Assembly: GCA_024696005.1 (NCBI GenBank) | Contig: JAILHF010000041.1 | Coordinates: 1-64,000 of the forward strand | Origin: Lachnospiraceae bacterium | Lineage (GTDB): Bacteria > Bacillota > Clostridia > Lachnospirales > Lachnospiraceae | DNA length: 64,000 nucleotides | Reading direction: 5' to 3' | Shown here: one piece after another, positions 2,775 to 21,611 of the stretch | Numbering within the stretch: position 1 is the stretch's first letter | How the letters are laid out: the number at the start of each line of letters is the position of its first letter | Notes under the pieces: model-generated | Seen by the model: the letters and a program-made list of their open reading frames with translations, nothing else | What the model was told of the DNA's origin: nothing | Databases searched by the model: none | Program-made: the position numbers and the translations under genes

Positions 2775-5700
2775 ATGAAAAAACAAACGTTGCGATGGTT
2801 GAGCAGGTTCATGAGCCTGATCCTGCTGCTTGTCACGCTGCCTTTGCCGGAACTGAAGGTGTTTGCGGCAGAGGAGCACTATGGGATATGGATCGGGAAC
2901 AAGGAGTTCACGTCCGAACATACGACGATCAACGGTGATAAAGGGACCGCGACCTATAATCCCAACAGCGGCTTGGTCACTTTTGACAACTTTGAGAATC
3001 ATGCCGGAGAGTCCCATGAAGGAGCAGATGGAAAGAAATATCTGTTCTATGTCGAGGATACTACGGATGACAGTGATGCCAATTTTGTCGAATTTACCGG
3101 AAAAGCGACTTTCAAAAGCTTATGGATGTCGGAATACGGCCTGGGGGCGGAAGCAGAAACGTGGCTTAATATTGCTAGCGGGGCGGATATCACTTTCAAA
3201 ATGTACAATACCGCGATCGATCTGCCCGAAGGCGCTGTTGATGTTTATGGAAAGCTGACGGTTGATGTTGAACTGGATGGGGACAGTGAGATCAGCGCTG
3301 TATACGCATCAACGCTGGAAAATAGTGGAACCGTCGATGTGATGCTGAAAAATAAATCTGCATCCGGCAATACAGGCAGCTGTACCGGAATAAGATGCAA
3401 AACTTACCTGTGGAATTACGGCAAGCTGAACTTGATCCAGGATCCCGGCGACGGGCCGGTCAGAAGCGGATTATATGTGGAGGATCGTGACCCGCATTAT
3501 GCGAAAAATGCTCAAACGATCATGTTGTATGGCGAAACGAATGTACGGGTAAATGGCGAGGACAGTGTCGCGATCGGTGCAAATGAGGATAATGCGCATG
3601 GATATGTCGTGATAGGCGGTGAAGTGTTTGCCCAGGGCGGGATGTATGCGTTCATGGTAAAAGCGCTGTCCTGGGATGATTATATGAAGGATTTGCTTTA
3701 TATCAAAAATCCCGAGGACGGCGTGTTCTCCGCAGACGGGAGGACGATCTTTGACAGCGAGGGAAATGTTGCGACAGCTGTCGAGATCGCAGCGCCTGAG
3801 CATTACGGTCTCTGGGTCGGCAGCACGGAAGTGACGGCGGCCAACTGCAAGAATATCCCGGGCATCGAGGGAACGGACGCAAAAGCTTCTTTCGATCCCA
3901 ATACCTCAACCCTCAAGTTTGAAGGAAACGTGACGGGGGTAGAGAGTCTGCATGACGGTGCCATCATCGAAGCCACCCGTTTCCTGAACATCGAAGGAAA
4001 TGCCGTGTTGCAGAATGCAAACGCGGAGGACGGCATCCGGCTTAAGGACGACATGACCGGCTCTGTGACCATTTACGGCGATATCGAGCTGAGAGCAAAA
4101 AAGAACATGGTTAATGCGCCGAAGAAAGATCTGGTCATTAACGGAAAACTGAAGGCTTTCAATTCGGCGGAAGAGGTGGGGGAAACCGGAGTTTACTGCA
4201 AGAGCCTGACGGTGAATAAAGATGCCACACTCGATATTTCGGCTCCGAAGGGGAATTCGACAGGGACGCTCCTGGTAGCCGGAGACATGACGATCGAAGG
4301 AGGCAGTGTATCGGTCACGGGCATGGCACTTCTCTATGATATCATCATCTCGGGGAATCTTTCCATGGATCAGGGTAAGCTGGAGGTTTCGAGTACTGCG
4401 GCAATGGCGGCAATGTCGGTAAACGGAAAGGCGGAACTGAAAGACAGCGTTGTGAAGGTCATTAATCCGTTTGAGACGGGCGGCGGCGCTCTTCAGGTGT
4501 CTAAGCCTGTCTTTGCGGAGAACAGCATCCTCAGGGCAGAGTCGGCGGGGATCGCGCTCACTGCCAAGGACGGCCTGTATCCGAAAAATTCGGAGGTTTA
4601 TGCCGCCAGCACGACTGATTTCGGCATCGCGTGTAATTTCCTTGAGATGGAGTCCGGAAAGCTCGAAGCTCAGGGCGCTACGCAGGCGATCGATTCCAAG
4701 GAAGGCTTTGACTTAAAGGACACCGTGACGATCACGGATCCGGTCGGCGGCAAGATCGTGAACAAGGTGATCGTGGAAGCGGACGGCGCCACGCCGGCCA
4801 AGCACGTGATGATCGATGGCGGAACCTATTATAAGCTTTGGGTCGATGCAAAGCAGATCAGCGACAAGAATGCCTCCAACATCACCTTCCCGGGAGGCGG
4901 CAGCGCCAGCTACGATCCGACAACAAAGACCCTGACCTTTAACGGTGACGATACGGTACTGATCAACACATATTTCTTTGATTCGGACTTGAATTCCGCC
5001 GGCATCTATGCGGAGCAGGATCTGACCATCAAGGGAAAGGTGACGATCAACAGTGCGGAATGGGCGCCGAGGTTTGCGATCTTTGTAAACGGCAATTATA
5101 TCCTGACCCTTGAGGACGCCGAAGTTGTATGTCCTTATGCCCATAAAGAAGGGGCCGTTGATGTGAGCTCGGGCATGCTCAAGCTTCAAAACAGCAGGCT
5201 CGACACGAAGGCTGCTATTTATGCCAAAGAACTTGTTTTGGACAAAGGCTATATTCATGCCGAAGATCAGGGGCAGGTAAAGGCCGGCGTCATAGACGTG
5301 TACGGTGACCTCGATCTGCGTTCGGGAAGCATCGAAGTGCTCGAGACCACGGAAGATGTGGCAGGCATTAATGTTTCCAAGAGTTTTGAGATGGATGAAA
5401 ACGGTACCGTGAAGGTCGAAAAGAACGGAAAAGGATCCTTCGCTTTTTCGGCGCAGGGCGGGCTGGGAATGGAAGGCGGAAGCCTTACGATCAGCGGAAA
5501 CGGCGCAGGGACTTACGGACTGGACCAGACGGCGGTATGGATGGCAAACGGCGCAGACATCAACATCGAGCTGACGGGAGAGAATGCCATGGCAGCCGAT
5601 TGCAACTCGGGGACCTTCGAGATCCTTGACGGGCGCTTTACCGCAACTGTTAGCGCAAACGGAAGCAAAGGCGTTACCGCAGATAAGCTGCTGCTGGAGA

Positions 5701-7379
5701 AAGGGACATTCTCGGTAGAGAGTTATGATCTGGCTTTGGAAACGGAAAAGCTGCAGATGAAGGGCGGAAAACTGAGTGCCCTGAGTACTAAGACGGATGG
5801 GCAGGCGATCAAGGTGGCATCCGGAGGTTTTGAGCTTTCGGAAGGCGTGGGGATCGTTGAGCCCGAGGGCGGCGATTTCAATGCGGCCGGAACAACGGTC
5901 GTGAACAAGGAAGGAAAGACCGCGTCGAAAGTGGTGCTGTCGGCAGAAAAGAAGTATGATACGGAAGATGCCGTGTGGAACCTCTTCACCACCGCCACCG
6001 CAAGCTTCGAGATCGCGGCCCTGAGCAGCACCGGCGAGCGCGAGAATATCAATGCAAAGTCGGCAAAATTCTATGACGCGAAGCTGAACGGAAATACCAT
6101 TACTGTTGCCTTAAAGAGCGGTGTGAACCGGAAAAAGGCTGCCGCTGCCGCAAATTCCGTTCTGGAATTTGACCTGGGCGAAGGCGGAACGGTGGTATAC
6201 GTGATGCCCGTGGAGTATAAGAAGCCGATCCTGAAGCTTGCGACTTCTTCCGTGCTGATCAAGGACGGAGCGGATACGCTCGTGAAAACGCAGGTTCTGG
6301 CCAAGACCTCGGAAGGTACCTTCCTGCCTTTCCCTCTCTACGGAGCCATCGTCAATTACGGCACCACGGCGGCTAGCGTGGACGGCTACGGTTATGTCCA
6401 GTTCCATGCTTCTTCCGCAGGAAAGGGTGCAAAGCTTTCCATCGCGATGGGCGGGTGGGAAAGCCCCATTGAGCTGAAGTTCAATGTCAAGACCACGACG
6501 AAGGATGTGCTGAGTTCGGAGATTTCCCAGAAAAAGAAGCTGGTCCTGAACAAGAACATGGCGGGACAGAATTACCAGTCCCAGCTGATGCTGAACGGAC
6601 AGGCTGTGACGGGAGACAAGGTGGAGGTCACCAAGGGCTCTGAAGTGGCAGGGATCACTTCGGAAGGAAGGCTTTTCATCCAGGCTCAGTCCGAGACAAA
6701 GCCGGGGAACTATAACGTGGAAATCAGCCAGAAGGGCGGAAGCGCCAAGCTTAAGTTCAAGGTAAAGGTGAGTGACACGGCACTGGATCAGGCCATCAGC
6801 CTGAAGATCGTGCAGAAATATGATGTGGTGACCGGACAGCCCATGGTGCTGACGCCGGTCTGCAAGGATGCGGAGTTCTTTGCCCTCGGCGCCGGCGTGG
6901 AATGCGGCAAGAACGTGGCGTATGCGGAAACGGATATCGCGGGAAACATTTACATCGCTTTCGATGATGGAAGCCTGAATGCGAAGAACCTGAACATCGG
7001 CGACATGAAGATCACACTGACGAGCGGCAGCAGCAAGGCCGTTGTCAACCTGAAGAACGTGAAGGCAAAGAAGACGACGCCGAAGGTACGGGCAGCCGTG
7101 GTGAACATCAGCCCCGATGCAAAGGGTGAAGTGAAGGGCAGTGTCAATCTGCAGTGCGTCTATAAGGATGCCGGCGGAAACCTGAGGGTGATGATCCCCA
7201 ATACGGTGACGATTGGGACTGCCAAAGGCGGAGAATTCGTTGTCAACGATTACGACCGGACCGAGATCGACGTGAAGTCCCTTTCGGGCAAGAGCGGAAG
7301 CGTGAAAGCGACGCTGACTTTCGCGGGTGGTGTGACAAAGGGTGTTACCATAAAGGCAAAAGCGGTAAAGAAAAAATAG
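2775..7379 (+). CDS. Secreted giant repeat protein with several LWV-type modules
   Basis: RBS aaaggagggag. Signal peptide MKKQTLRWLSRFMSLILLLVTLPLPELKVFAAEE. Three copies of [HY]Y[GK][IL]W[IV]...Y[DN]P.[ST]. Confidence 0.85.
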   Translation: MKKQTLRWLSRFMSLILLLVTLPLPELKVFAAEEHYGIWIGNKEFTSEHTTINGDKGTATYNPNSGLVTFDNFENHAGESHEGADGKKYLFYVEDTTDDSDANFVEFTGKATFKSLWMSEYGLGAEAETWLNIASGADITFKMYNTAIDLPEGAVDVYGKLTVDVELDGDSEISAVYASTLENSGTVDVMLKNKSASGNTGSCTGIRCKTYLWNYGKLNLIQDPGDGPVRSGLYVEDRDPHYAKNAQTIMLYGETNVRVNGEDSVAIGANEDNAHGYVVIGGEVFAQGGMYAFMVKALSWDDYMKDLLYIKNPEDGVFSADGRTIFDSEGNVATAVEIAAPEHYGLWVGSTEVTAANCKNIPGIEGTDAKASFDPNTSTLKFEGNVTGVESLHDGAIIEATRFLNIEGNAVLQNANAEDGIRLKDDMTGSVTIYGDIELRAKKNMVNAPKKDLVINGKLKAFNSAEEVGETGVYCKSLTVNKDATLDISAPKGNSTGTLLVAGDMTIEGGSVSVTGMALLYDIIISGNLSMDQGKLEVSSTAAMAAMSVNGKAELKDSVVKVINPFETGGGALQVSKPVFAENSILRAESAGIALTAKDGLYPKNSEVYAASTTDFGIACNFLEMESGKLEAQGATQAIDSKEGFDLKDTVTITDPVGGKIVNKVIVEADGATPAKHVMIDGGTYYKLWVDAKQISDKNASNITFPGGGSASYDPTTKTLTFNGDDTVLINTYFFDSDLNSAGIYAEQDLTIKGKVTINSAEWAPRFAIFVNGNYILTLEDAEVVCPYAHKEGAVDVSSGMLKLQNSRLDTKAAIYAKELVLDKGYIHAEDQGQVKAGVIDVYGDLDLRSGSIEVLETTEDVAGINVSKSFEMDENGTVKVEKNGKGSFAFSAQGGLGMEGGSLTISGNGAGTYGLDQTAVWMANGADINIELTGENAMAADCNSGTFEILDGRFTATVSANGSKGVTADKLLLEKGTFSVESYDLALETEKLQMKGGKLSALSTKTDGQAIKVASGGFELSEGVGIVEPEGGDFNAAGTTVVNKEGKTASKVVLSAEKKYDTEDAVWNLFTTATASFEIAALSSTGERENINAKSAKFYDAKLNGNTITVALKSGVNRKKAAAAANSVLEFDLGEGGTVVYVMPVEYKKPILKLATSSVLIKDGADTLVKTQVLAKTSEGTFLPFPLYGAIVNYGTTAASVDGYGYVQFHASSAGKGAKLSIAMGGWESPIELKFNVKTTTKDVLSSEISQKKKLVLNKNMAGQNYQSQLMLNGQAVTGDKVEVTKGSEVAGITSEGRLFIQAQSETKPGNYNVEISQKGGSAKLKFKVKVSDTALDQAISLKIVQKYDVVTGQPMVLTPVCKDAEFFALGAGVECGKNVAYAETDIAGNIYIAFDDGSLNAKNLNIGDMKITLTSGSSKAVVNLKNVKAKKTTPKVRAAVVNISPDAKGEVKGSVNLQCVYKDAGGNLRVMIPNTVTIGTAKGGEFVVNDYDRTEIDVKSLSGKSGSVKATLTFAGGVTKGVTIKAKAVKKK

Positions 7380-7385
7380 GATGTA

Positions 7386-7411
7386 AAAGGGGGTGGTTAT
7401 CCGCCCCCTTT
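7386..7411 (+). terminator. Rho-independent terminator-like hairpin after the 2775..7379 CDS
   Basis: AAAGGGGGTGG-TTAT-CCGCCCCCTTT: 11-bp stem with one G-U pair and a short T run. Confidence 0.6.
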
Positions 7412-7428
7412 ATCAGATGTGTCCCCTA

Positions 7429-7457
7429 TTCACAGCTTTTACGATCTGTGATAAAAT
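7429..7457 (+). promoter_or_regulatory. Sigma-A-type promoter for the 7501..12441 CDS
   Basis: TTCACA (7429-7434)-N17-TAAAAT (7452-7457). Confidence 0.5.
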
Positions 7458-7500
7458 GATAATCGGTGTATTTTTAATCTCATCAGGAAAGGAGACAAGA

Positions 7501-10500
7501 ATGAGACACGACAGAGCTTTGAGAAGACTGGTCTCGCTGATGCTGGCTTTTCTGCTGGTATTCGGTGAACTGGGCGGAAGCGGGCTGCGGGTATTCGCGC
7601 AGGGGGATGAGCCTGAGGAAGAGACGAACGTTTCGGAAGATTCCGGAGCGGGAGAAGCAGCTGTTTCGGAAAAAGAAGGCGGAGAGGAAGAAGCTCTGCC
7701 GGCCACGCCTACGGAAGGGGAGGAGGAGCCTGAACCGGATGAAGCAACAAATTATGATCTCTGGGTAGGTGGGATGCGTATCAATTCCGATAATAAGGGT
7801 GCGATCCCTCATCTTGAGGGGGACGGTGCAAGCGGAACCTATGATCCTGATACAAAAACCCTTACCCTGGATAAGGTGACGGGTATCAACGGAAGAGTGA
7901 AAATGGGGAGTGTCGTCGCTACGATCTATTCGAAGGATGAACTGAATATCCGCGGAAATGCCACGATTAATACCCCGGAAGGGTCGGTGATCTGGCTGGA
8001 TAACAGTGATGATCCCAAGAATCTGAGTATTCAGGGGAAGTTTACCTTTAACTCTTCTAAAAAAACTGCCGTGTATACCGAAGGCGCAATTACCATCAGC
8101 GGAGCGGATACCAGGCTGAGTGTTACGGGAACGGATGCCTGGGGAGTGAGCGGGAAAAGCGGGATCACCATCAACGGCGGTACCATTTATGCGACTGCGT
8201 TTTGCCCGATGAGTACGAATGGGGTCTTAGATTTTAAGGCGGGTGAGCTTACGCTGAAGACAAATAGTATCGGATGGTCTTCCGCTTTGTATGTTACCGG
8301 GGAAAACAGTGATATCAAGATCGGAAAAGGGTATGAGATCCTTACGCCCGACGGCGGGAGAATCCTGAAGAAAAACGAAGGAACAAAGGATCAGCAGGTT
8401 CAGATCGTGGATACGAAAGATGCAGAAGCAAGTGAGGTCTGCATCGGCGCGGAAGCTGAAAAGTATGATCTTTGGGTAGGTGATCTCCGGATCACGGCAA
8501 GGAATAAGGATAACATTCCGAATCTGGAAGGCAGCGGAGCAAAAGGGACCTATGATCCGGTAACGAAAACGCTTAATCTCACAAAGGTGAGCGGGATCAG
8601 TAATTCTTATCAGGGCAAGGATGCGGCTGGACACAGCTTCAAGAGTCTGATCTATACGGAAGGAGAGTTGAGCATTACCGGTGATGCCGAGCTTTCGAAT
8701 GAGAACGGTCACGTGATCTATGCAAGCCCCAAAACATCGCCGGCATACAGGAGCCTTTCTCTGACGGGGGATTTTGAGTTCAGCTCCAATTCATCTTCGA
8801 TATATGCATTAGGCAATGTGCAGATCAACGGAGAAGATACGAAGCTCGTGATGAAAACGGAAGGTACCTACGGCATTTCGGCCAAGGGTGCGGAAGGCAT
8901 CCGGATCAGTGCAGGAAGTGTAAAGGTCAGCGGCAGCGGCGGGCTCATTGCGGATAACAGCATTGTTTTCGCCGGCGGCACCACCGAGCTGGATGTGAGT
9001 AATGAGATGTATACCATAAAGGCGAAAACCATCACCCTGGGAGAGAACATGGGAGTGCTTTCGCCGGAAGGTGCGGCTCCCCGGAAATTTGAAGAGGGAA
9101 CGGCAAATGAATATATGTCCATAGCAGACGCCGGCGGCAAAAAGGTTAAAAAATGCACCATCGGCCGGGAACCGGAGAAATACGACCTCTGGATCGGCGA
9201 CAAGCAGGTCACTTCCGCGAATATGGAAGCACTTCCCAATCTGCAGGGCGGGACAGGTACTTACGATCCGGAGAAGAAGATCCTTGTGCTGAATAATGTG
9301 ACGGAGATCAAGGGAAGCCATAATAACGCTCTGATCGCAACGGAAATGAGCACGGATATCACCATCAGGGGGAAGGCCGTGCTGAACAACAATGGGGGCA
9401 GTGTGGTCTACACGCCGGGAAATGTTACGCTGGAGGGGAATATGGACTTTACCTCCGGAAAGAATGCTGCAGTGGACTGTTCCAAGCTGACCCTTAAAGG
9501 TGATCTGAAAGCAAAGGCAAATGAAAACGAGCGATATGCCCTTCATGTTTCTTCGGACCTGATCATGTCGGAAGGTACGGTCAAGCTGGAAGGACAGAAC
9601 GGTATCTGGTCTGCCGGGAATATCAAGATCAACGGCGGCGACTTAAGCATCGACGTGGCGGGAATGGCAGTATCTCTGACAGAGACCAAGGATATCACTC
9701 TTTCGGGCGGACTGGCTTATCTGGAGCCCGTGGGGGCGCATGTCGGCCAGAATCCGGAGAATGTCTACATGAAGACGATCCTGGATGGCGATGAAAAGCC
9801 CGCAAAGAAGGTACATGTCGGAAACAAAGAGGGAAGTCCGCTTGCGGTTACCCAGAAGAGCATCATGTACGGGGATACGCTCCCCGCACCGGAGTATGCG
9901 AAACCCGCTGAGGGCGGTACGGAAGTGCTCAGCTACAGCGGTGTGCTGAAAAAAGACAGCAGCGCCTACGGACCGACGGAAGAGCCGCCGAAGTATCCCG
10001 GTGACTATACGGTGATGGTATGCTATACGGTGGACGGAAAAGATTATGTCGGAACGGCTTCTTTCAGTATCTTCAAGAGAAATGTTGTCGCAAAGCTGAA
10101 GGCGGTGGACAGACCCTACCGGGAAGGGGACAGCCATGTGGATCTTGAGGTGGTCGAACTCCAGGGAGTGCTGGACGGCGATTCGGTATTCATCGACCTG
10201 AGCGAAGCCACCGGTGATATCGGGGGTGTTGATGCCGGAGAGAATATCCCCGTCTATGTGAGCGGAGTGAAATTAAGCGGTGCCGATCGTTTCCATTACG
10301 AAATGAATCCGATCATGGATGTAAAGGTCAATATCGAAAAGGCAGAGTGGACGGCCACGGAGACCAGCTATCTCATCAAGGAAACAGAGATCGGCCATCC
10401 CGTGACCTGGACGCCGGACAGTAACTTTCTGGCAGCGGGCGGAAAACTGGATGCGGTGGAAGCGGATGCTGCGAGAAACCAGCTCGACGGAAGCGCCGTG

Positions 10501-12441
10501 ATCGATTCCGGCAAACTGAAGTTTACGATCAAGGCCGGCACGGAGCTCGGGTCCGTTGATACGCTTTTGAAGATCAGCATCAAGGATGCAAAGAACTACA
10601 AGGATTATACCCTGGAACTGAAGATCGTCGGCGATCACAAGCATACGGAAGAGTATCTTAAGCATGTGGACGAGGTTCCGGCGGGCTGCGAGACGGATGG
10701 CTGCAAAGAGCATTATGTCTGTGTGCTCTGCGGAAGACTGTTTACGAAGAGCGGAAGCACGTTTACGGAAGTGCTGCTTTCCGATCTGCGGATCGCGCCT
10801 ATCGGCCATGACTGGGGGGAGTGGGTTATCGTGAAATATCCCACGGAAACCGAAGACGGACTGGAGAGAAGACAGTGCAAGCGCGATCCTTCCCACATCG
10901 AGGAGCGGGTGATCCCTGCGGGAACGGATGTTCCCAAACCGGAGATCGGCCTGGATATCCGCATTGTTGACGCAGCCGTGTACAAGGATGCGGACGGACG
11001 CGATACGACTGTCTACACCGGAAGTGCCATCAAGCCTGCCGTGGTGGTAAAGAACAACGGCAAGCTTTTGACGGAAGGCGTGGATTACAAGCTGAGCTAC
11101 AAGAAGAACACCAAGCCCGGAACCGCGCTGGTCGTGGTCAGCGGCAAGGGCAGCTATACCAAGAAGGCCGAGCTTCCCTTCGTCATCACCAAGAAGAACA
11201 TTGCGGATGTTGATGTGCTGGTCGGCGATCTGACGGTGGAAATCGGCAAGGCAGCGGCACCCAGCCTGGTCTATAACGGTGTGCTGCTGAAGGCCAAGAA
11301 GGATTATACCGTTTCCGCAAGCGGAACGACGCTGACCATCACCGGAAAGGGCAACTTCGAAGGAACCAGGACGGAAACCGTGATCGAGCAGGCAGCGGAT
11401 GCTTATAAGGCATCGGCCATCAAGGTAGAGCTGGGCAAGAACATCACCAAGGTCTACAACGGCATGCCGCAGACACTTAGCGCCGAAGAGCTCAAGGTTA
11501 CCGATGCCTCCGGTGCGGTGCTTGTAAACGGAACGGATTATGTGGTCGGTTATTCCGCGAATGTCAATGCCGGAGCCGTAAAGGTAACGGTGAGCGGCAA
11601 GGGCGGACACAGCGGAAAGGTTTCGAAGGTCTTCAAGATCCTGCCCGACAAGGATGCCGTCATCACGGTCGAAGGGCTCCTGGCAAGCTATCCTTATCAC
11701 AAGACCGGCGTAAAACCGGCCCTTGTTGTCAAGGCAGGCGGCAAGCTCCTTACGGAAGGACGCGATTACAAGGTAACTTATTCCGCAAACAAGAAGATGG
11801 GCACGGGCAAGTTCCAGCTGAGCTTCCTCGGCAATTACAAGGGCGCGAAGTACAGCGGGACCACGAGCTTCACGATCGAAAAAGCTAAGCCCATGGCAGC
11901 AAACATCAATGTGATCACGGGCGACATGGCATTCGGCAAGCCCGGCAAGTACCAGCCGAAGGTATGGGTGATCGCGGACGGCAGGCTTGTAAAGAACAGC
12001 GACCTGAACGTGACGTATTCGGAGAGCGGAAAGCTCACGGAAGCCAAAAACGGACTGAGCATCAAGGTGAGCGGCAAGGGCAGCTATGAATTCGTCGAGA
12101 AGATCGTAAGCTACGATGTGCGCAGCACGAAGGATGTCGATGTGAACAAGGCCAAGGTTTCGCTGACGAAGGGCGGCAAGGGTGTGAAGAAGGTGGAATA
12201 CACCGGACGTGAGATCACCTTCTCGGCTCTTTTCAGCGACGAGCCTCAGATCACGGTCAAGATCGGCAAAACGGTCCTGACCGGAGCGGAAGTGGAGCAG
12301 AAGTTCGACATCTACTATGCGGATAACCTGGAAAAGGGCAAGGCAACGATCGTGCTGAAGGCGAAAGCCGGTTCCGGATATGTGGGAGCCTGCGCGGGAA
12401 GCTTCAACATCGTGAGCGAGCCCATCAACAGAAAGAATTAA
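7501..12441 (+). CDS. Secreted giant repeat protein: three LWV-type modules, a Cys/His-rich doublet region and a C-terminal array of Ig-like repeats
   Basis: RBS aggaaaggag before ATG 7501 and signal peptide MRHDRALRRLVSLMLAFLLVFGELGGSGLRVFAQ. The ORF-track start at 7393 lies in the terminator/promoter region. Modules: NYDLWVGGMRINSDNK, KYDLWVGDLRITARNK, KYDLWIGDKQVTSANM. Confidence 0.87.
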   Translation: MRHDRALRRLVSLMLAFLLVFGELGGSGLRVFAQGDEPEEETNVSEDSGAGEAAVSEKEGGEEEALPATPTEGEEEPEPDEATNYDLWVGGMRINSDNKGAIPHLEGDGASGTYDPDTKTLTLDKVTGINGRVKMGSVVATIYSKDELNIRGNATINTPEGSVIWLDNSDDPKNLSIQGKFTFNSSKKTAVYTEGAITISGADTRLSVTGTDAWGVSGKSGITINGGTIYATAFCPMSTNGVLDFKAGELTLKTNSIGWSSALYVTGENSDIKIGKGYEILTPDGGRILKKNEGTKDQQVQIVDTKDAEASEVCIGAEAEKYDLWVGDLRITARNKDNIPNLEGSGAKGTYDPVTKTLNLTKVSGISNSYQGKDAAGHSFKSLIYTEGELSITGDAELSNENGHVIYASPKTSPAYRSLSLTGDFEFSSNSSSIYALGNVQINGEDTKLVMKTEGTYGISAKGAEGIRISAGSVKVSGSGGLIADNSIVFAGGTTELDVSNEMYTIKAKTITLGENMGVLSPEGAAPRKFEEGTANEYMSIADAGGKKVKKCTIGREPEKYDLWIGDKQVTSANMEALPNLQGGTGTYDPEKKILVLNNVTEIKGSHNNALIATEMSTDITIRGKAVLNNNGGSVVYTPGNVTLEGNMDFTSGKNAAVDCSKLTLKGDLKAKANENERYALHVSSDLIMSEGTVKLEGQNGIWSAGNIKINGGDLSIDVAGMAVSLTETKDITLSGGLAYLEPVGAHVGQNPENVYMKTILDGDEKPAKKVHVGNKEGSPLAVTQKSIMYGDTLPAPEYAKPAEGGTEVLSYSGVLKKDSSAYGPTEEPPKYPGDYTVMVCYTVDGKDYVGTASFSIFKRNVVAKLKAVDRPYREGDSHVDLEVVELQGVLDGDSVFIDLSEATGDIGGVDAGENIPVYVSGVKLSGADRFHYEMNPIMDVKVNIEKAEWTATETSYLIKETEIGHPVTWTPDSNFLAAGGKLDAVEADAARNQLDGSAVIDSGKLKFTIKAGTELGSVDTLLKISIKDAKNYKDYTLELKIVGDHKHTEEYLKHVDEVPAGCETDGCKEHYVCVLCGRLFTKSGSTFTEVLLSDLRIAPIGHDWGEWVIVKYPTETEDGLERRQCKRDPSHIEERVIPAGTDVPKPEIGLDIRIVDAAVYKDADGRDTTVYTGSAIKPAVVVKNNGKLLTEGVDYKLSYKKNTKPGTALVVVSGKGSYTKKAELPFVITKKNIADVDVLVGDLTVEIGKAAAPSLVYNGVLLKAKKDYTVSASGTTLTITGKGNFEGTRTETVIEQAADAYKASAIKVELGKNITKVYNGMPQTLSAEELKVTDASGAVLVNGTDYVVGYSANVNAGAVKVTVSGKGGHSGKVSKVFKILPDKDAVITVEGLLASYPYHKTGVKPALVVKAGGKLLTEGRDYKVTYSANKKMGTGKFQLSFLGNYKGAKYSGTTSFTIEKAKPMAANINVITGDMAFGKPGKYQPKVWVIADGRLVKNSDLNVTYSESGKLTEAKNGLSIKVSGKGSYEFVEKIVSYDVRSTKDVDVNKAKVSLTKGGKGVKKVEYTGREITFSALFSDEPQITVKIGKTVLTGAEVEQKFDIYYADNLEKGKATIVLKAKAGSGYVGACAGSFNIVSEPINRKN

Positions 12442-17529: not shown

Positions 17530-17559
17530 TTGTCACGACGGGCCGTTCTGATGTATAAT
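17530..17559 (+). promoter_or_regulatory. Sigma-A-type promoter for the RyR-channel operon
   Basis: TTGTCA (17530-17535)-N18-TATAAT (17554-17559). Confidence 0.75.
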
Positions 17560-17596
17560 GGTTGGGATTGTTTGGTATATGGGGGGAGACGGTGCA

Positions 17597-19180
17597 TTGA
17601 ACAGAAAACGGATCAAGCGTGTCATCTTCGGGATCATTCTGGCGTATCTTGTGCTGATGATCGTTCTTTATGTCACGGAAAGCTTCGGGAGCGCGGAGGA
17701 AGGCAGGATCAAGACCATCGGGGATGCGGCCTGGTATCTTTTGGCGACCCTTACCACCGTCGGTTACGGTGACCTGACACCGATCACACCTTTCGGCAAG
17801 GTCATAGGCGCGTTGATGATGATCTCCAGCGCCGGTGTGCTCACCTTTCTCCTGGGATTGCTCTTTTCCCTGTTTTTCGGGCGTCTTCTGCCGAGATTTA
17901 CCCTGTGGTGGCTGAAAAGAAGGACCTGGCATGTATTCTCGAGCCTGAACGAGCAGTCGCTCTTTCTGGCGAAAAAGCTCGCGGCGGACGAGCCCGGCTC
18001 TGTCTGTGTTTTCTGCAATGCCTATGAAGGGCTTGCCCGCGAGATCTTCAGCGAAAAGGGAAACTTCGTCATGATCGACGCGGCGGTCGAGCAGGTGGTG
18101 CGCAGACAGAGGAAAAGCGCTGCCTGCAATGTTTTCCTTATCGGGGAGAACACCTGGGACAACTATTCGCAGGGAAGCGAATTCCTGAAAGGGACGAAGC
18201 GGGAGCGGATCCGGGTCTGCTGCGAGACCGAGCACGCTCCGGAGCATGTTCCCGAGAACATGGTTTTGTTCAACCGGCCGGACAACACGGCCAGAAGCTA
18301 TTGGATCGACAACCCGCCTGCGGAGGAGGAGCGTGTCTTTGTGCTGATCGGAAGCGGCCGCCTGGCCAGAAGGCTCATGGAGAGAGGGCTGCTGATCAAT
18401 GTCCTGCCGGACGGGAGACCGCTGGAATACCATCTTTTCGGTGACTGGGAGGATTTCCGCAGGGATCATTACGCCCTGCATAATGCCTTGAGCGTGGATG
18501 AGGTCTCGGAGACTTCGGACAGCGTGCTCTTTGAAAAGGAGGCGTGGAACGCCTCGGCCGAGCTGCTGTCTCGTGCCGACCGCATCATCTTCTGCAGCGA
18601 CGAGGAGGAGGAAAACCTCCGGCTGCTGGATGAGCTTTTCAAGTATTTCCCGACCCGGGCGGCCGTGGATGTGTGTGCGCCGCTGGAGGATGCCAGATGC
18701 AGATCCTTCGGAGACGACGGCAGGATCCTGTCGCCGGAGATGGTCCTGAAGGACCGCCTGAACCAGACGGCCATCCTGCTGAACGACCTGTACGGGCAGA
18801 AGACCGGCGGCGGCTGCCGTTTCGGCGAGCTTTCGGAGTTTCACCGCCAGTCCAACATCGCGGCTGCGGATCATCTGCCGACGAAGCTCCGCCTTCTGCT
18901 GAAGGGGGAAAAAGTGGACGCGATCACGGCAGAAAACTGCAGCAGGGCTTATGAAGCATACCGGGCCCTTTCGCCGGAGCAGAAGGTGGATTGCCGGCGG
19001 CTGGAGCATAAGCGCTGGATGCGTTTCCATGTCATGAACAACTGGGAGTACGCGCAGAAGAGAGATAATTCCCGGCGCAGGCACCATCTGCTGGTCCCGT
19101 TTGAGGATCTGACGCTGAAAGAGCAGGAGCTGGATGATTCCGCCTGGGAAGTATTGGGCGAGGTGAAGAACGTATGGTAG
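17597..19180 (+). CDS. Two-TM potassium channel with Rossmann/TrkA-like region and apparent C-terminal RyR domain
   Basis: Selectivity filter 'ATLTTVGYGDLTPITPFGK'. C-terminal 'FHRQSNIAAADHLPTKLR...CRRLEHKRWMRFHVMNNWEYAQKRDNSRRRHHLLVPFEDL' matches the bacterial RyR pattern (EH.RW....W.Y...RD....H..LVP...L). TTG start 17597 preferred (RBS ggggggag); the ATG at 17558 overlaps the -10 box. Confidence 0.85.
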   Translation: MNRKRIKRVIFGIILAYLVLMIVLYVTESFGSAEEGRIKTIGDAAWYLLATLTTVGYGDLTPITPFGKVIGALMMISSAGVLTFLLGLLFSLFFGRLLPRFTLWWLKRRTWHVFSSLNEQSLFLAKKLAADEPGSVCVFCNAYEGLAREIFSEKGNFVMIDAAVEQVVRRQRKSAACNVFLIGENTWDNYSQGSEFLKGTKRERIRVCCETEHAPEHVPENMVLFNRPDNTARSYWIDNPPAEEERVFVLIGSGRLARRLMERGLLINVLPDGRPLEYHLFGDWEDFRRDHYALHNALSVDEVSETSDSVLFEKEAWNASAELLSRADRIIFCSDEEEENLRLLDELFKYFPTRAAVDVCAPLEDARCRSFGDDGRILSPEMVLKDRLNQTAILLNDLYGQKTGGGCRFGELSEFHRQSNIAAADHLPTKLRLLLKGEKVDAITAENCSRAYEAYRALSPEQKVDCRRLEHKRWMRFHVMNNWEYAQKRDNSRRRHHLLVPFEDLTLKEQELDDSAWEVLGEVKNVW

Positions 19181-21042
19181 TGATCGTATTTTCGGCAGCG
19201 GTATTCATGGCGCTGATCCTGTATATCGCGCTGGAACAGGACAAGAGGGAGCGCCTTACCGGCATCGCATTTTTTATCGCGACGGCGGGCGGCATCCTGA
19301 TCTACGGGTTCAGCTATGCCACGGAAGGGCACAGCTTTTTCGAGGATTCTTCGGGCGTGTTCAAGACGCTGGTGGATGTGGGCCGCATGTTTGTGGGCAT
19401 GAACAATGAACCGGTCTATCGGGCAATGCTGGAGGATGAGGGGCTTTCGGGAGGCGTCTGGAGCCTGCTCTTCTGGGTGACACATTTCCTGGCTTATTAT
19501 TCGATGGCCAGCGCGGCGATCCTCACACTCGGAAAGGGAGCGGCCAGAAAGCTCCAGTTATGGCTGCTGAACATAAGGGATGTGGATCTGATCTACGGGA
19601 TCACGGACAATGCCATCGCGCTGGGGCGGCATATCGCTACCGATCCGCATCTCTCTGTGGTCTTTGTCGGACAGGCAACGGCTGCGCAGGAGCTGGCGAT
19701 ACGTCAGATGAAGGCGCTCCTGCTTTCGGATGACATGGCAACGGTGCCGCAGGAGGGCTTTCTGGACTGCATCTCCGTAAAGGAGAAGAAGGGACGTCTG
19801 AAGCTTTACGCCATCTCCAAGGAAGGCGAGGCCAATTACAATTATGCCCTGCGCCTGCTCAGGCTTTTGGAGAAGAGAAAGATCCCGGTGAAGAACACTT
19901 CGCTGGTCCTTCTGGGCCGGGAAGAGCGGCACGGCAATGTCCTGCAGGCCTACAGCGACCATTACGGCTACGGGGAAGTGCAGGTCTTTGACGGGGCGGA
20001 GCTGACCTCGCGCCTGCTGATCCAGAGATATCCTCTCTGCAGCGCGATCGATTTCGATCCGAAGGGAAGAGCGGAACAGAACATGGAAGTGCTGCTGGTG
20101 GGCTTCGGCCACAGCGGACAGGAGATCCTTCGCAAGATCGTCGCGAACGGGCAGTTTGAAGGCAGCCGCTTTCATGTGGATGTGTTCGATCCCGAGTACG
20201 GAAGGCACGACGGCTTTTACCAGAAGCGCTATGCCGCGATGCTTGAGAATTATGACATCTGTTTTCATGCAAACGGTGGCAGGAGCAGGGAATTCTGCGC
20301 CTTTCTGGAGGAACACGCAAAACGTCTGAAGTATATCGTGATTTCCATCGGCGATCTGGGAAAGTGCAGGGAGCTGGCGGAGGAGATCATGGAGCTCATG
20401 ATCAAGACCGGGCGGAAGCTGCCCGTTTATGCCTGCTGCGATTCAAGCGTGGTACGTTATCATCCGCAGGACGAGAGCGTCACGCACAACCTGCATGACA
20501 TGGAAACGCTCTTCGGAGCCGACATGGACCGCCAGGCCATGGAGATCAACCATTTTTACCACGATCCGGCCGGTTCGCTGACGGAGCAGTGGCAGGAGGC
20601 CGATTACTTCAGCCGCATGAGCTGCAGGGCCAGCGCGGATTTCCTGGGTTCCTATCTGCCGCGTGTCCTGCAGGATGAAACGGAAGAGCCTGACAAGGAG
20701 ATGCTCGAGAATCTTGCGAAAACGGAACATCTCCGCTGGAATGCCTTCCATTATTCCATGGGCTATTCCTGCATGGAGAAAGAGGAGTGGGATGAGCGGG
20801 CAGCCAAATTCCGAGAACAGGAAGAAAAAGGCATCAGCCCCCGCATCCGCATCAGCAAGGACCCCGAAAACCACCGGCATGCCTGCCTGGTGGACTGGGA
20901 CGAACTGGATGCGCTTTCCAGGAAAGAGAATGCCGTGACCGGTGGCCACGTGGATTACAAGCAGATGGACCGGGATAATGTGGTGACCATGGCCAAGCTG
21001 CTTCGGGGGAACGGATCAGACAAGGAGGAAGGGAACGCATGA
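19174..21042 (+). CDS. Membrane protein with Rossmann-like region(s) and RyR-like C-terminus; no K+ selectivity filter
   Basis: N-terminal TM segments; 'DLIYGITDNAIALGRHIATDPHLSVVFVGQ' and 'NMEVLLVGFGHSGQEILRKIV' Rossmann-like; C-terminal 'LAKTEHLRWNAFHYSMGY...HACLVDWDELDALS' RyR-like. Overlaps both neighbours. Confidence 0.8.
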   Translation: MVVIVFSAAVFMALILYIALEQDKRERLTGIAFFIATAGGILIYGFSYATEGHSFFEDSSGVFKTLVDVGRMFVGMNNEPVYRAMLEDEGLSGGVWSLLFWVTHFLAYYSMASAAILTLGKGAARKLQLWLLNIRDVDLIYGITDNAIALGRHIATDPHLSVVFVGQATAAQELAIRQMKALLLSDDMATVPQEGFLDCISVKEKKGRLKLYAISKEGEANYNYALRLLRLLEKRKIPVKNTSLVLLGREERHGNVLQAYSDHYGYGEVQVFDGAELTSRLLIQRYPLCSAIDFDPKGRAEQNMEVLLVGFGHSGQEILRKIVANGQFEGSRFHVDVFDPEYGRHDGFYQKRYAAMLENYDICFHANGGRSREFCAFLEEHAKRLKYIVISIGDLGKCRELAEEIMELMIKTGRKLPVYACCDSSVVRYHPQDESVTHNLHDMETLFGADMDRQAMEINHFYHDPAGSLTEQWQEADYFSRMSCRASADFLGSYLPRVLQDETEEPDKEMLENLAKTEHLRWNAFHYSMGYSCMEKEEWDERAAKFREQEEKGISPRIRISKDPENHRHACLVDWDELDALSRKENAVTGGHVDYKQMDRDNVVTMAKLLRGNGSDKEEGNA

Positions 21043-21611
21043 AGAAAAAATTCAAGGTAACGATCAACGCACCGGTAGTGCTGGGCTTTGCGCTGGCCTG
21101 CCTGATAGCCTTTATCCTGGGGCTGGTCTCGGGAGGCTTCCTGACGGATCTGCTTTTCATGACAAAGCGTTCGTCGCTGCTTTCGCCGCTGACCTGGCTG
21201 CGTCTGTTCACGCATGTGCTCGGCCACAGCGGATGGGAGCATTTTATCGGGAACATGTCCTATATCCTGCTGCTCGGCCCCATGCTGGAAGAAAAGCACG
21301 GCTCGCAGAAGATCATCGAGGTGATCCTGATCACTGCACTTGTGGCTTCGGTGGTCAACAGGATCCTGTTCCCGAACGTGGGGCTCCTCGGGGCGAGCGG
21401 CATCGTCTTTGCCTTTATCCTGATGACCTCGTTCACGAGCTTCAAGGAAGGTGAGATCCCGCTTTCCTTCATCCTGGTGGCCGTGATCTTTCTCGGAAAA
21501 GAGATCATCGACGGGATCTTCGTCCGCGACAACATCTCGAACCTCTCCCATATCCTCGGAGGCGTTGTGGGTGCGATCGCGGGTTATATCCACAATGTGA
21601 AACGAAAGTAG
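21039..21611 (+). CDS. Rhomboid-family intramembrane serine protease
   Basis: 190 aa. 'HSGWEHFIGNM' (H...N), 'LGASGIVFAF' (GxSG), 'NLSHILGGVVGAIAGY' (catalytic His). ATGA overlap with the preceding gene. Confidence 0.88.
   Translation: MKKKFKVTINAPVVLGFALACLIAFILGLVSGGFLTDLLFMTKRSSLLSPLTWLRLFTHVLGHSGWEHFIGNMSYILLLGPMLEEKHGSQKIIEVILITALVASVVNRILFPNVGLLGASGIVFAFILMTSFTSFKEGEIPLSFILVAVIFLGKEIIDGIFVRDNISNLSHILGGVVGAIAGYIHNVKRK

What the first reader, a model, noticed from the sequence alone, without database searches (positions are those of the whole stretch)
17530..21611. Candidate new system: RyR-domain K+ channel, RyR-domain filter-less relative and rhomboid protease in one overlapping operon
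Seen: one promoter (TTGTCA-N18-TATAAT) precedes three genes that overlap by 7 nt (19174-19180) and 4 nt (21039-21042, ATGA). Gene 1 has a K+ filter (TTVGYGD), a Rossmann-like region and a C-terminus of RyR type. Gene 2 has N-terminal TM helices, Rossmann-like stretches and a second RyR-like C-terminus. Gene 3 has rhomboid H..N, GxSG and H motifs. Knowledge: RyR domains (Pfam PF02026) occur in bacteria, in some cases next to TrkA/channel-type domains, with poorly defined function. Inference: a ligand- or nucleotide-gated ion channel pair whose assembly or release is controlled by intramembrane proteolysis.
Basis: partly seen in the sequence, partly recalled or inferred. Interest (0 to 1): 0.85.

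Follow-up and report, generated by a model that had tools for sequence, protein, structure and literature searches.

The report
TIR-linked RyR-domain ion channel pair
Two neighbouring bacterial membrane-protein genes, one a potassium channel carrying the ligand-binding domain of animal ryanodine receptors and the other a relative without a selectivity filter, recur together across gut and rumen bacteria and are strikingly often encoded beside membrane-anchored TIR enzymes, which suggests a bacterial immune-type pathway in which an NAD-derived signal gates an ion channel.

Summary
The three genes are real. Gene 1 is a 2TM K+ channel with a double-Rossmann (RCK-type) gating ring and a C-terminal RyR domain (PF02026 just over its cut-off; every one of 33 relatives matches). 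Gene 2 is a paralogue of gene 1's cytoplasmic part; its RyR domain is too divergent for Pfam but aligns profile-to-profile with gene 1's (E 3e-12). Gene 3 is a rhomboid, but a bystander: no other copy of the pair has it, and homologues occur elsewhere in many genomes of the family. Of 80 gene-2 loci from GTDB genomes, 45 have gene 1 next door and 29 have a TIR gene within 200 bp (27 same strand); TIR fills 30 of 151 adjacent gene slots against 2 of 476 distant ones. Nearly all linked TIRs have one TM helix after the TIR domain, and most keep the NADase glutamate. The window's operon has no TIR, but its genome holds unlinked orthologues of operonic TIRs. The RyR pocket residues match, with identical spacing in gene 1, those of phage RyDEP, which binds TIR-made cADPR isomers. 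Best reading: a Thoeris-like pathway with a new RyR/RCK membrane effector. The function is untested.

The parts
17530..17559 (+). sigma-70-like promoter TTGTCA-N18-TATAAT, downstream of a terminator-like hairpin
   Evidence: pattern scan, 11 of 12 matches, not above chance expectation; sequence
   Evidence: PF07885 and PF02026; AlphaFold2 pLDDT 88.8; Foldseek best hits GsuK, Slo, MthK, TrkA; homologue starts
19007..19135 (+). RyR ligand-pocket residues of G1: H (codon 19007), W (19016), H (19082), D (19133)
   Evidence: invariant or 32 of 33 in the family; spacing 3/22/17 as in RyDEP H75, W78, H100, D117
19174..21042 (+). gene 2 (G2): membrane helices without a K+ filter, double-Rossmann RCK-type ring, divergent C-terminal RyR-like domain
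   Evidence: AlphaFold2 pLDDT 89.3; Foldseek TrkA, CASTOR and DMI1 gating rings, GsuK; hhalign to G1 E 1.4e-25 overall, 2.7e-12 for the C-terminus
20728..20970 (+). conserved residues of the G2 RyR-like domain: H519 (codon 20728), W522 (20737), H569 (20878), D594 (20953), D599 (20968)
   Evidence: H, W, H and D599 invariant in 39 of 39; D594 36 of 39
21039..21611 (+). rhomboid-family intramembrane protease gene; last gene of the run, judged a bystander
   Evidence: PF01694 E 6e-23; homologues elsewhere without G1/G2; absent from the other G2 loci

Best explanation
G1 and G2 form a membrane effector whose cytoplasmic RCK-type gating ring ends in RyR domains that bind an adenine-nucleotide signal. 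The signal is most likely an ADP-ribose-type molecule made from NAD+ by membrane-anchored TIR enzymes: cytoplasmic TIR, one TM helix, then an extracytoplasmic WD40/Sel1/TPR/MORN part that would sense the trigger. Binding would open the G1 K+ channel or a G1-G2 assembly, causing K+ loss and depolarisation and stopping growth; the purpose is probably defence against phage or another envelope threat. Shown here: the families, the folds (predicted), the conserved pairing, the physical linkage to TIR genes, the kept pocket and catalytic residues. Inferred: signal identity, gating, G1-G2 co-assembly, defence role, and that in this genome the TIR acts in trans (candidates on contigs C27 and C24). The rhomboid is not part of it.
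For: G2 profile: 45 of 392 order genomes and 272 confirmed stretches in GTDB contigs, across Lachnospiraceae, Oscillospiraceae, Synergistaceae, Mogibacterium and Solobacterium. In 80 loci G1 is adjacent in 45 (22 in order G1-G2, 23 in order G2-G1) and TIR lies within 200 bp in 29, 27 on the same strand; TIR fills 30 of 151 adjacent slots against 2 of 476 slots four or more genes away (Fisher p 8e-18, not corrected for relatedness); 21 of 40 sequence clusters contain an adjacent TIR. An isolate plasmid, Butyrivibrio fibrisolvens pNP243, has an annotated TIR gene directly upstream of G2. Linked TIRs score as TIR_2 and partly as ThsB_TIR above cut-off, with sensor-like repeats; the catalytic Glu is conserved in 86% of TIR domains; almost all have one TM just after TIR with a basic N-side. 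The own genome has three TIR genes. One (L211) is a full-length orthologue of TIRs operonic with G2 in Butyrivibrio; that clade occurs in 7 of 385 genomes, 6 of which carry G2. A second (L213) is orthologous to the operonic TIRs of L168 and L171. RyR pocket residues H/W/H/D match RyDEP, shown by others to bind 2'/3'cADPR (PMC13232231). The closest solved folds of G1 include the nucleotide-bound K+ channel GsuK.
Against: No TIR lies within the window, and none next to the closest relatives L131-L134; the trans partnership rests on orthology and co-occurrence. Co-occurrence is confounded by relatedness (five of the seven clade genomes are one genus), and one genome (G116) has the TIR without G2. 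G1 also occurs alone without TIR or G2 in several genomes (L050-L055). The same pocket residues bind ATP/ADP-type ligands in animal RyRs, so they do not prove cADPR. Many loci sit among housekeeping genes, not defence islands. G2's membrane part is not shown to be a pore.
Confidence: 0.5

Rival explanations
1. Housekeeping energy or NAD sensor. The RCK/RyR channels bind ATP, ADP, NAD or ADP-ribose and adjust K+ flux to the metabolic state; TIR genes are neighbours because NAD depletion is one of the states sensed, without a dedicated signal molecule.
For: GsuK, the best structural match of G1, has ADP- and NAD-bound structures; animal RyR R12 domains bind adenine ligands with the same residues; G1 occurs alone; many housekeeping neighbourhoods.
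Against: TIR linkage is as common with G2 alone (16 of 35) as with the pair (13 of 45) and spans very different TIR architectures, hard to explain without a direct functional link.
Confidence: 0.25
2. TIR acts as a scaffold: membrane TIR receptors and G1/G2 assemble into one complex and gating is by protein contact, with no diffusible nucleotide.
For: Both sides are membrane proteins and share operons; the Mogibacterium-type loci pair a TIR that keeps the Glu with one that lacks it.
Against: Catalytic Glu conserved in most linked TIRs; G2 keeps the nucleotide-pocket residues in 39 of 39.
Confidence: 0.12
3. One reading: assembly or release of the channel pair is controlled by the rhomboid protease.
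For: 4-nt overlap of gene 3 with gene 2 in this genome; other proteases recur near the family elsewhere (papain-like fused to G2 in L162, L169, L195; clostripain-like C11 in L044, L046, L162, L195).
Against: No rhomboid at any other G2 locus; rhomboid homologues are widespread without G2.
Confidence: 0.04
4. c-di-AMP-gated K+ channel as in RCK_C proteins of Firmicutes.
For: Double-Rossmann ring of RCK type.
Against: No TrkA_C/RCK_C match in any member scanned; the position after the ring is taken by the RyR domain.
Confidence: 0.04

Closest known systems
Thoeris anti-phage systems (TIR protein ThsB plus effector ThsA)
   Same: TIR protein predicted to make an ADP-ribose-type signal, encoded beside an effector with a nucleotide-binding sensor domain; some linked TIRs score above cut-off for ThsB_TIR.
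   Different: The sensor is RyR, not SLOG, Macro or caspase-like; the effector is a K+ channel plus a filterless relative on an RCK ring; TIRs are membrane-anchored with large extracytoplasmic parts; no anti-phage test.
Phage RyDEP (RyR-domain defence evasion protein, PMC13232231)
   Same: RyR (PF02026) domain with the same four pocket residues at the same spacing in G1.
   Different: RyDEP is a stand-alone phage enzyme or sponge that destroys or captures the signal; here the domain sits on a bacterial membrane channel.
RCK K+ channels GsuK, MthK, Slo and the TrkA/KtrA gating rings
   Same: 2TM pore and tandem Rossmann gating ring.
   Different: RyR domain at the C-terminus in place of RCK_C; a filterless paralogue encoded in the same operon.
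Animal ryanodine receptors
   Same: RyR repeat on the cytoplasmic part of a cation channel (E about 1e-9 to the RyR1 repeat).
   Different: No other shared domain; K+ selectivity filter, bacterial RCK ring.
Swarozyc (DUF4062 TIR-like NADases, PMC13174449)
   Same: A DUF4062-like gene (by eye) lies beside one filterless RCK-RyR relative (L059).
   Different: Single-protein NAD depletion; no RyR or channel mentioned in the paper.

Membership tests
RyR domain (PF02026), gene 1 | Pfam match above gathering score | tested here: met
   27.6 bits against 27.4; 33 of 33 relatives match, best E 5e-9
RyR domain (PF02026), gene 2 | Pfam match above gathering score | tested here: not met
   no hit for the window protein; 1 of 39 relatives at E 0.041
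RyR domain (PF02026), gene 2 | homology to an accepted RyR domain by profile comparison, pocket residues kept | tested here: met
   hhalign to gene 1 C-terminus prob 97.6, E 2.7e-12; H, W, H, D invariant in 39 of 39
2TM K+ channel (PF07885), gene 1 | two TM helices with TVGYG filter | tested here: met
   E 7e-11; GYGD invariant in 33 of 33
2TM K+ channel (PF07885), gene 2 | two TM helices with TVGYG filter | tested here: not met
   no hit; N-terminal profile comparison prob 1.1
RCK/TrkA-type gating ring | tandem Rossmann fold similar to solved rings | tested here: met
   Foldseek G1: GsuK E 8e-7; G2: TrkA E 3e-5; TM-scores only 0.3-0.4, so fold-level similarity only
Thoeris | TIR gene adjacent to an effector gene with a nucleotide sensor domain | tested here: inconclusive
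   met in 29 of 80 loci, not in the window's own operon
Thoeris | TIR makes a cADPR-type signal that activates the effector | not testable with these tools
   catalytic Glu conserved in 86%; no assay
Thoeris | known ThsA effector family (SIR2-SLOG, Macro-TM and others) | tested here: not met
   no PADLOC match for G1 or G2 beyond one weak hit at E 0.02
Rhomboid protease (PF01694), gene 3 | Pfam match; HxxxN, GxSG and H motifs | tested here: met
   E 6e-23; motifs visible in the sequence

The most novel reading that the evidence does not exclude
Bacteria gate an ion channel through a RyR domain with a cyclic ADP-ribose-type signal made by a membrane-spanning Toll-like (TIR) receptor. This would be a bacterial counterpart, and possibly the evolutionary source, of the long-disputed cADPR-to-ryanodine-receptor signalling of animals, and a new effector class of TIR immunity.
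Probability: 0.4. Interest if true: 0.92.

Novelty: new variant of a known kind. Interest (0 to 1): 0.75.

Why it matters
RyR domains have lacked a defined role in bacteria; in 2026 phage members were reported to bind or cleave cADPR isomers. Finding the domain on channel-type membrane proteins that repeatedly share operons with TIR enzymes gives it a concrete, testable role as the receptor of a TIR-made signal, adds a candidate class of membrane effector to TIR immunity, and bears on whether cADPR directly regulates animal ryanodine receptors. I found no held paper that describes the combination.

Tried and rejected
Rhomboid as a system component: rejected. c-di-AMP/RCK_C gating: no RCK_C match. 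Defence library match of G1/G2 themselves: none of use. Gene 2 against solved structures by single sequence: nothing; with the profile, only 6uhi at E 0.035 among RyR entries. Phage records: no G2; plasmids: one. G2-G1 fusion suspected from 1140-1188 aa ORFs: wrong, the extra part is a TM plus papain-like C1 peptidase. Homology of the G2 membrane part to the channel pore: not found. Literature on Thoeris with channels, on RCK with TIR, or on RyR in virus-host NAD reviews: nothing.
Full report
What is in the window. Three same-strand ORFs overlap by 7 and 4 nt as described. A terminator-like hairpin precedes a TTGTCA-N18-TATAAT promoter; the promoter match is good (11 of 12) but not beyond chance for the region. 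The first ATG of gene 1 lies inside the -10 box. Homologues start where the window has TTG at 17597 behind a purine-rich site, so that is the likelier start.

Gene 1. Pfam gives an ion channel (E 7e-11) and RyR (3.4e-6, just over its cut-off). Its last 79 residues find solved RyR domains at E 9e-15 (6uhi), about 1e-9 (RyR1 repeat) and 1.6e-6 (putative bacterial RyR protein 3nrt). All 33 members of an alignment of related loci match both families. The AlphaFold2 model (pLDDT 88.8) has TM1, pore helix, TM2, two Rossmann lobes and a helical C-terminus. Foldseek's best matches are the K+ channel GsuK, Slo channels, MthK and TrkA, so the middle is an RCK-type gating ring.

Gene 2. Alone it matches nothing of use. 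As a profile it aligns with gene 1 over 424 columns (E 1.4e-25). The C-terminal part aligns on its own with E 2.7e-12, including the EHxRW and H-x-C-L motifs, so it is a divergent RyR domain, although Pfam does not see it. The model (pLDDT 89.3) again shows the double Rossmann ring, nearest to TrkA, CASTOR and DMI1 rings. The membrane part is not detectably a channel pore, so filter-less relative is a fair description of the cytoplasmic half only.

Conservation. In 392 genomes of the order, 45 carry gene-2-like sequence. A scan of GTDB genomes confirmed 272 stretches; the best 80 loci come from Lachnospiraceae, Butyrivibrio, Oscillospiraceae, Synergistaceae, Mogibacterium and Solobacterium, many from rumen and gut. 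Gene 1 is adjacent in 45 of the 80, half in each order, which argues for a functional pair, not one inherited operon.

TIR partners. Reading the neighbourhoods revealed TIR proteins next to gene 2. Within the 80 loci a TIR gene lies within 200 bp in 29, on the same strand in 27. Adjacent gene slots hold TIR in 30 of 151 cases, slots four or more genes away in 2 of 476. At 65% identity the 80 fall into 40 clusters, and 21 contain an adjacent TIR. An isolate plasmid record shows the same arrangement with independent annotation. The linked TIRs match TIR_2, some also ThsB_TIR above cut-off, with WD40, Sel1, TPR or MORN repeats behind. The glutamate expected for NADase activity is kept in 86% of the TIR domains; a paired shorter TIR in Mogibacterium-type loci lacks it. 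By hydropathy nearly all linked TIRs have one TM helix directly after the TIR domain with basic residues on the TIR side, so they are probably receptors with the TIR inside and the repeats outside.

The window's genome. The operon has no TIR nearby, but the genome has three TIR genes. One (contig C27, L211) is full-length related to TIRs that sit in operons with gene 2 in Butyrivibrio (69% identity in TIR, 28% in the C-terminal part). That clade occurs in 7 of 385 order genomes, and six of the seven carry gene 2; in three of those six (including this genome) the genes are unlinked. A second (C24, L213) is related in the same way to the operonic TIRs of L168 and L171. All gene-2 genomes tested (20 of 20) have a TIR gene, against 174 of 385 in the order. 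These co-occurrence figures are not corrected for relatedness.

Ligand pocket. A 2026 preprint (PMC13232231) reports that phage RyR proteins bind 2'/3'cADPR, the Thoeris signals, through H75, W78, H100 and D117, and that animal RyR domains use the same residues for adenine ligands. In gene 1 the H-W-H-D set is present with identical spacing (3, 22, 17) and is invariant, or 32 of 33 for the Asp. Gene 2 keeps H, W, H and an Asp in 39 of 39, with insertions. The mapping is by sequence, not by superposition. The pocket is thus intact but does not by itself tell cADPR from ATP.

Rhomboid. Gene 3 is a true rhomboid family member, but homologues with 45-66% identity occur in about 30 of 120 genomes of the family without this context, including the same genus elsewhere, and none lies beside any other copy of the pair. 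It is most simply a bystander, perhaps co-transcribed here.

Mechanism. The best-supported model is a TIR-made ADP-ribose-type signal binding the RyR domains and gating the G1 channel or a G1-G2 assembly. Linkage, folds and residue conservation are shown; ligand, gating, co-assembly and biological purpose are inferred. The main rival is a general adenine-nucleotide or NAD sensor, supported by gene-1 copies that stand alone and by housekeeping neighbourhoods.

Relation to known systems. It works like Thoeris in outline, but fails one membership feature (a known ThsA family) and the key one (signal-activated effector) cannot be tested here; it should be called Thoeris-like, not Thoeris. No held paper found describes RyR-RCK proteins with TIR partners.

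Noticed in passing
L162:8986-12408, L169:5130-8696, L195:8992-12411: Gene 2 is fused at its C-terminus to a further TM helix and a predicted extracellular papain-like C1 peptidase with a lectin-like domain; a clostripain-like C11 peptidase follows in L162 and L195.
   Followed up: partly
L044:1478-3595 and L046:11177-13264: Clostripain-like C11 proteins also lie near the G2-TIR loci in two other genera.
   Followed up: partly
L135:10839-11906, L138-L140 about 10870-11867, L092:7936-8970: An inosine/uridine-type nucleoside hydrolase (PF01156) follows gene 2 in a clade of close relatives, overlapping it by 4 nt in some.
   Followed up: partly
L192, L194, L196, L197, L201, L204, L205, L207, L103: Two TIR proteins in tandem, one keeping the catalytic Glu and one shorter and lacking it, near the G1-G2 pair.
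   Followed up: partly
L057, L058, L060, L113, L122, L123, L124: Shorter or more divergent RCK-RyR membrane proteins also sit beside TIR genes, so the association extends beyond the gene-2 family.
   Followed up: partly
L059:3214-7044: A protein starting with IFISSTFKDMQSERD (DUF4062-like by eye, a TIR-like NADase family) lies next to a filterless RCK-RyR relative.
   Followed up: no
L056:4244-5482: A CARF/Card1-like protein (by eye only) lies next to an RCK-RyR relative among apparent mobile-element genes.
   Followed up: no
L051:125-1198: A Macro-domain protein (by eye) lies a few genes upstream of a stand-alone gene-1-type channel.
   Followed up: no
window 2775-12441: Two very large secreted, probably surface, proteins (1534 and 1682 aa) in tandem.
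   Followed up: no
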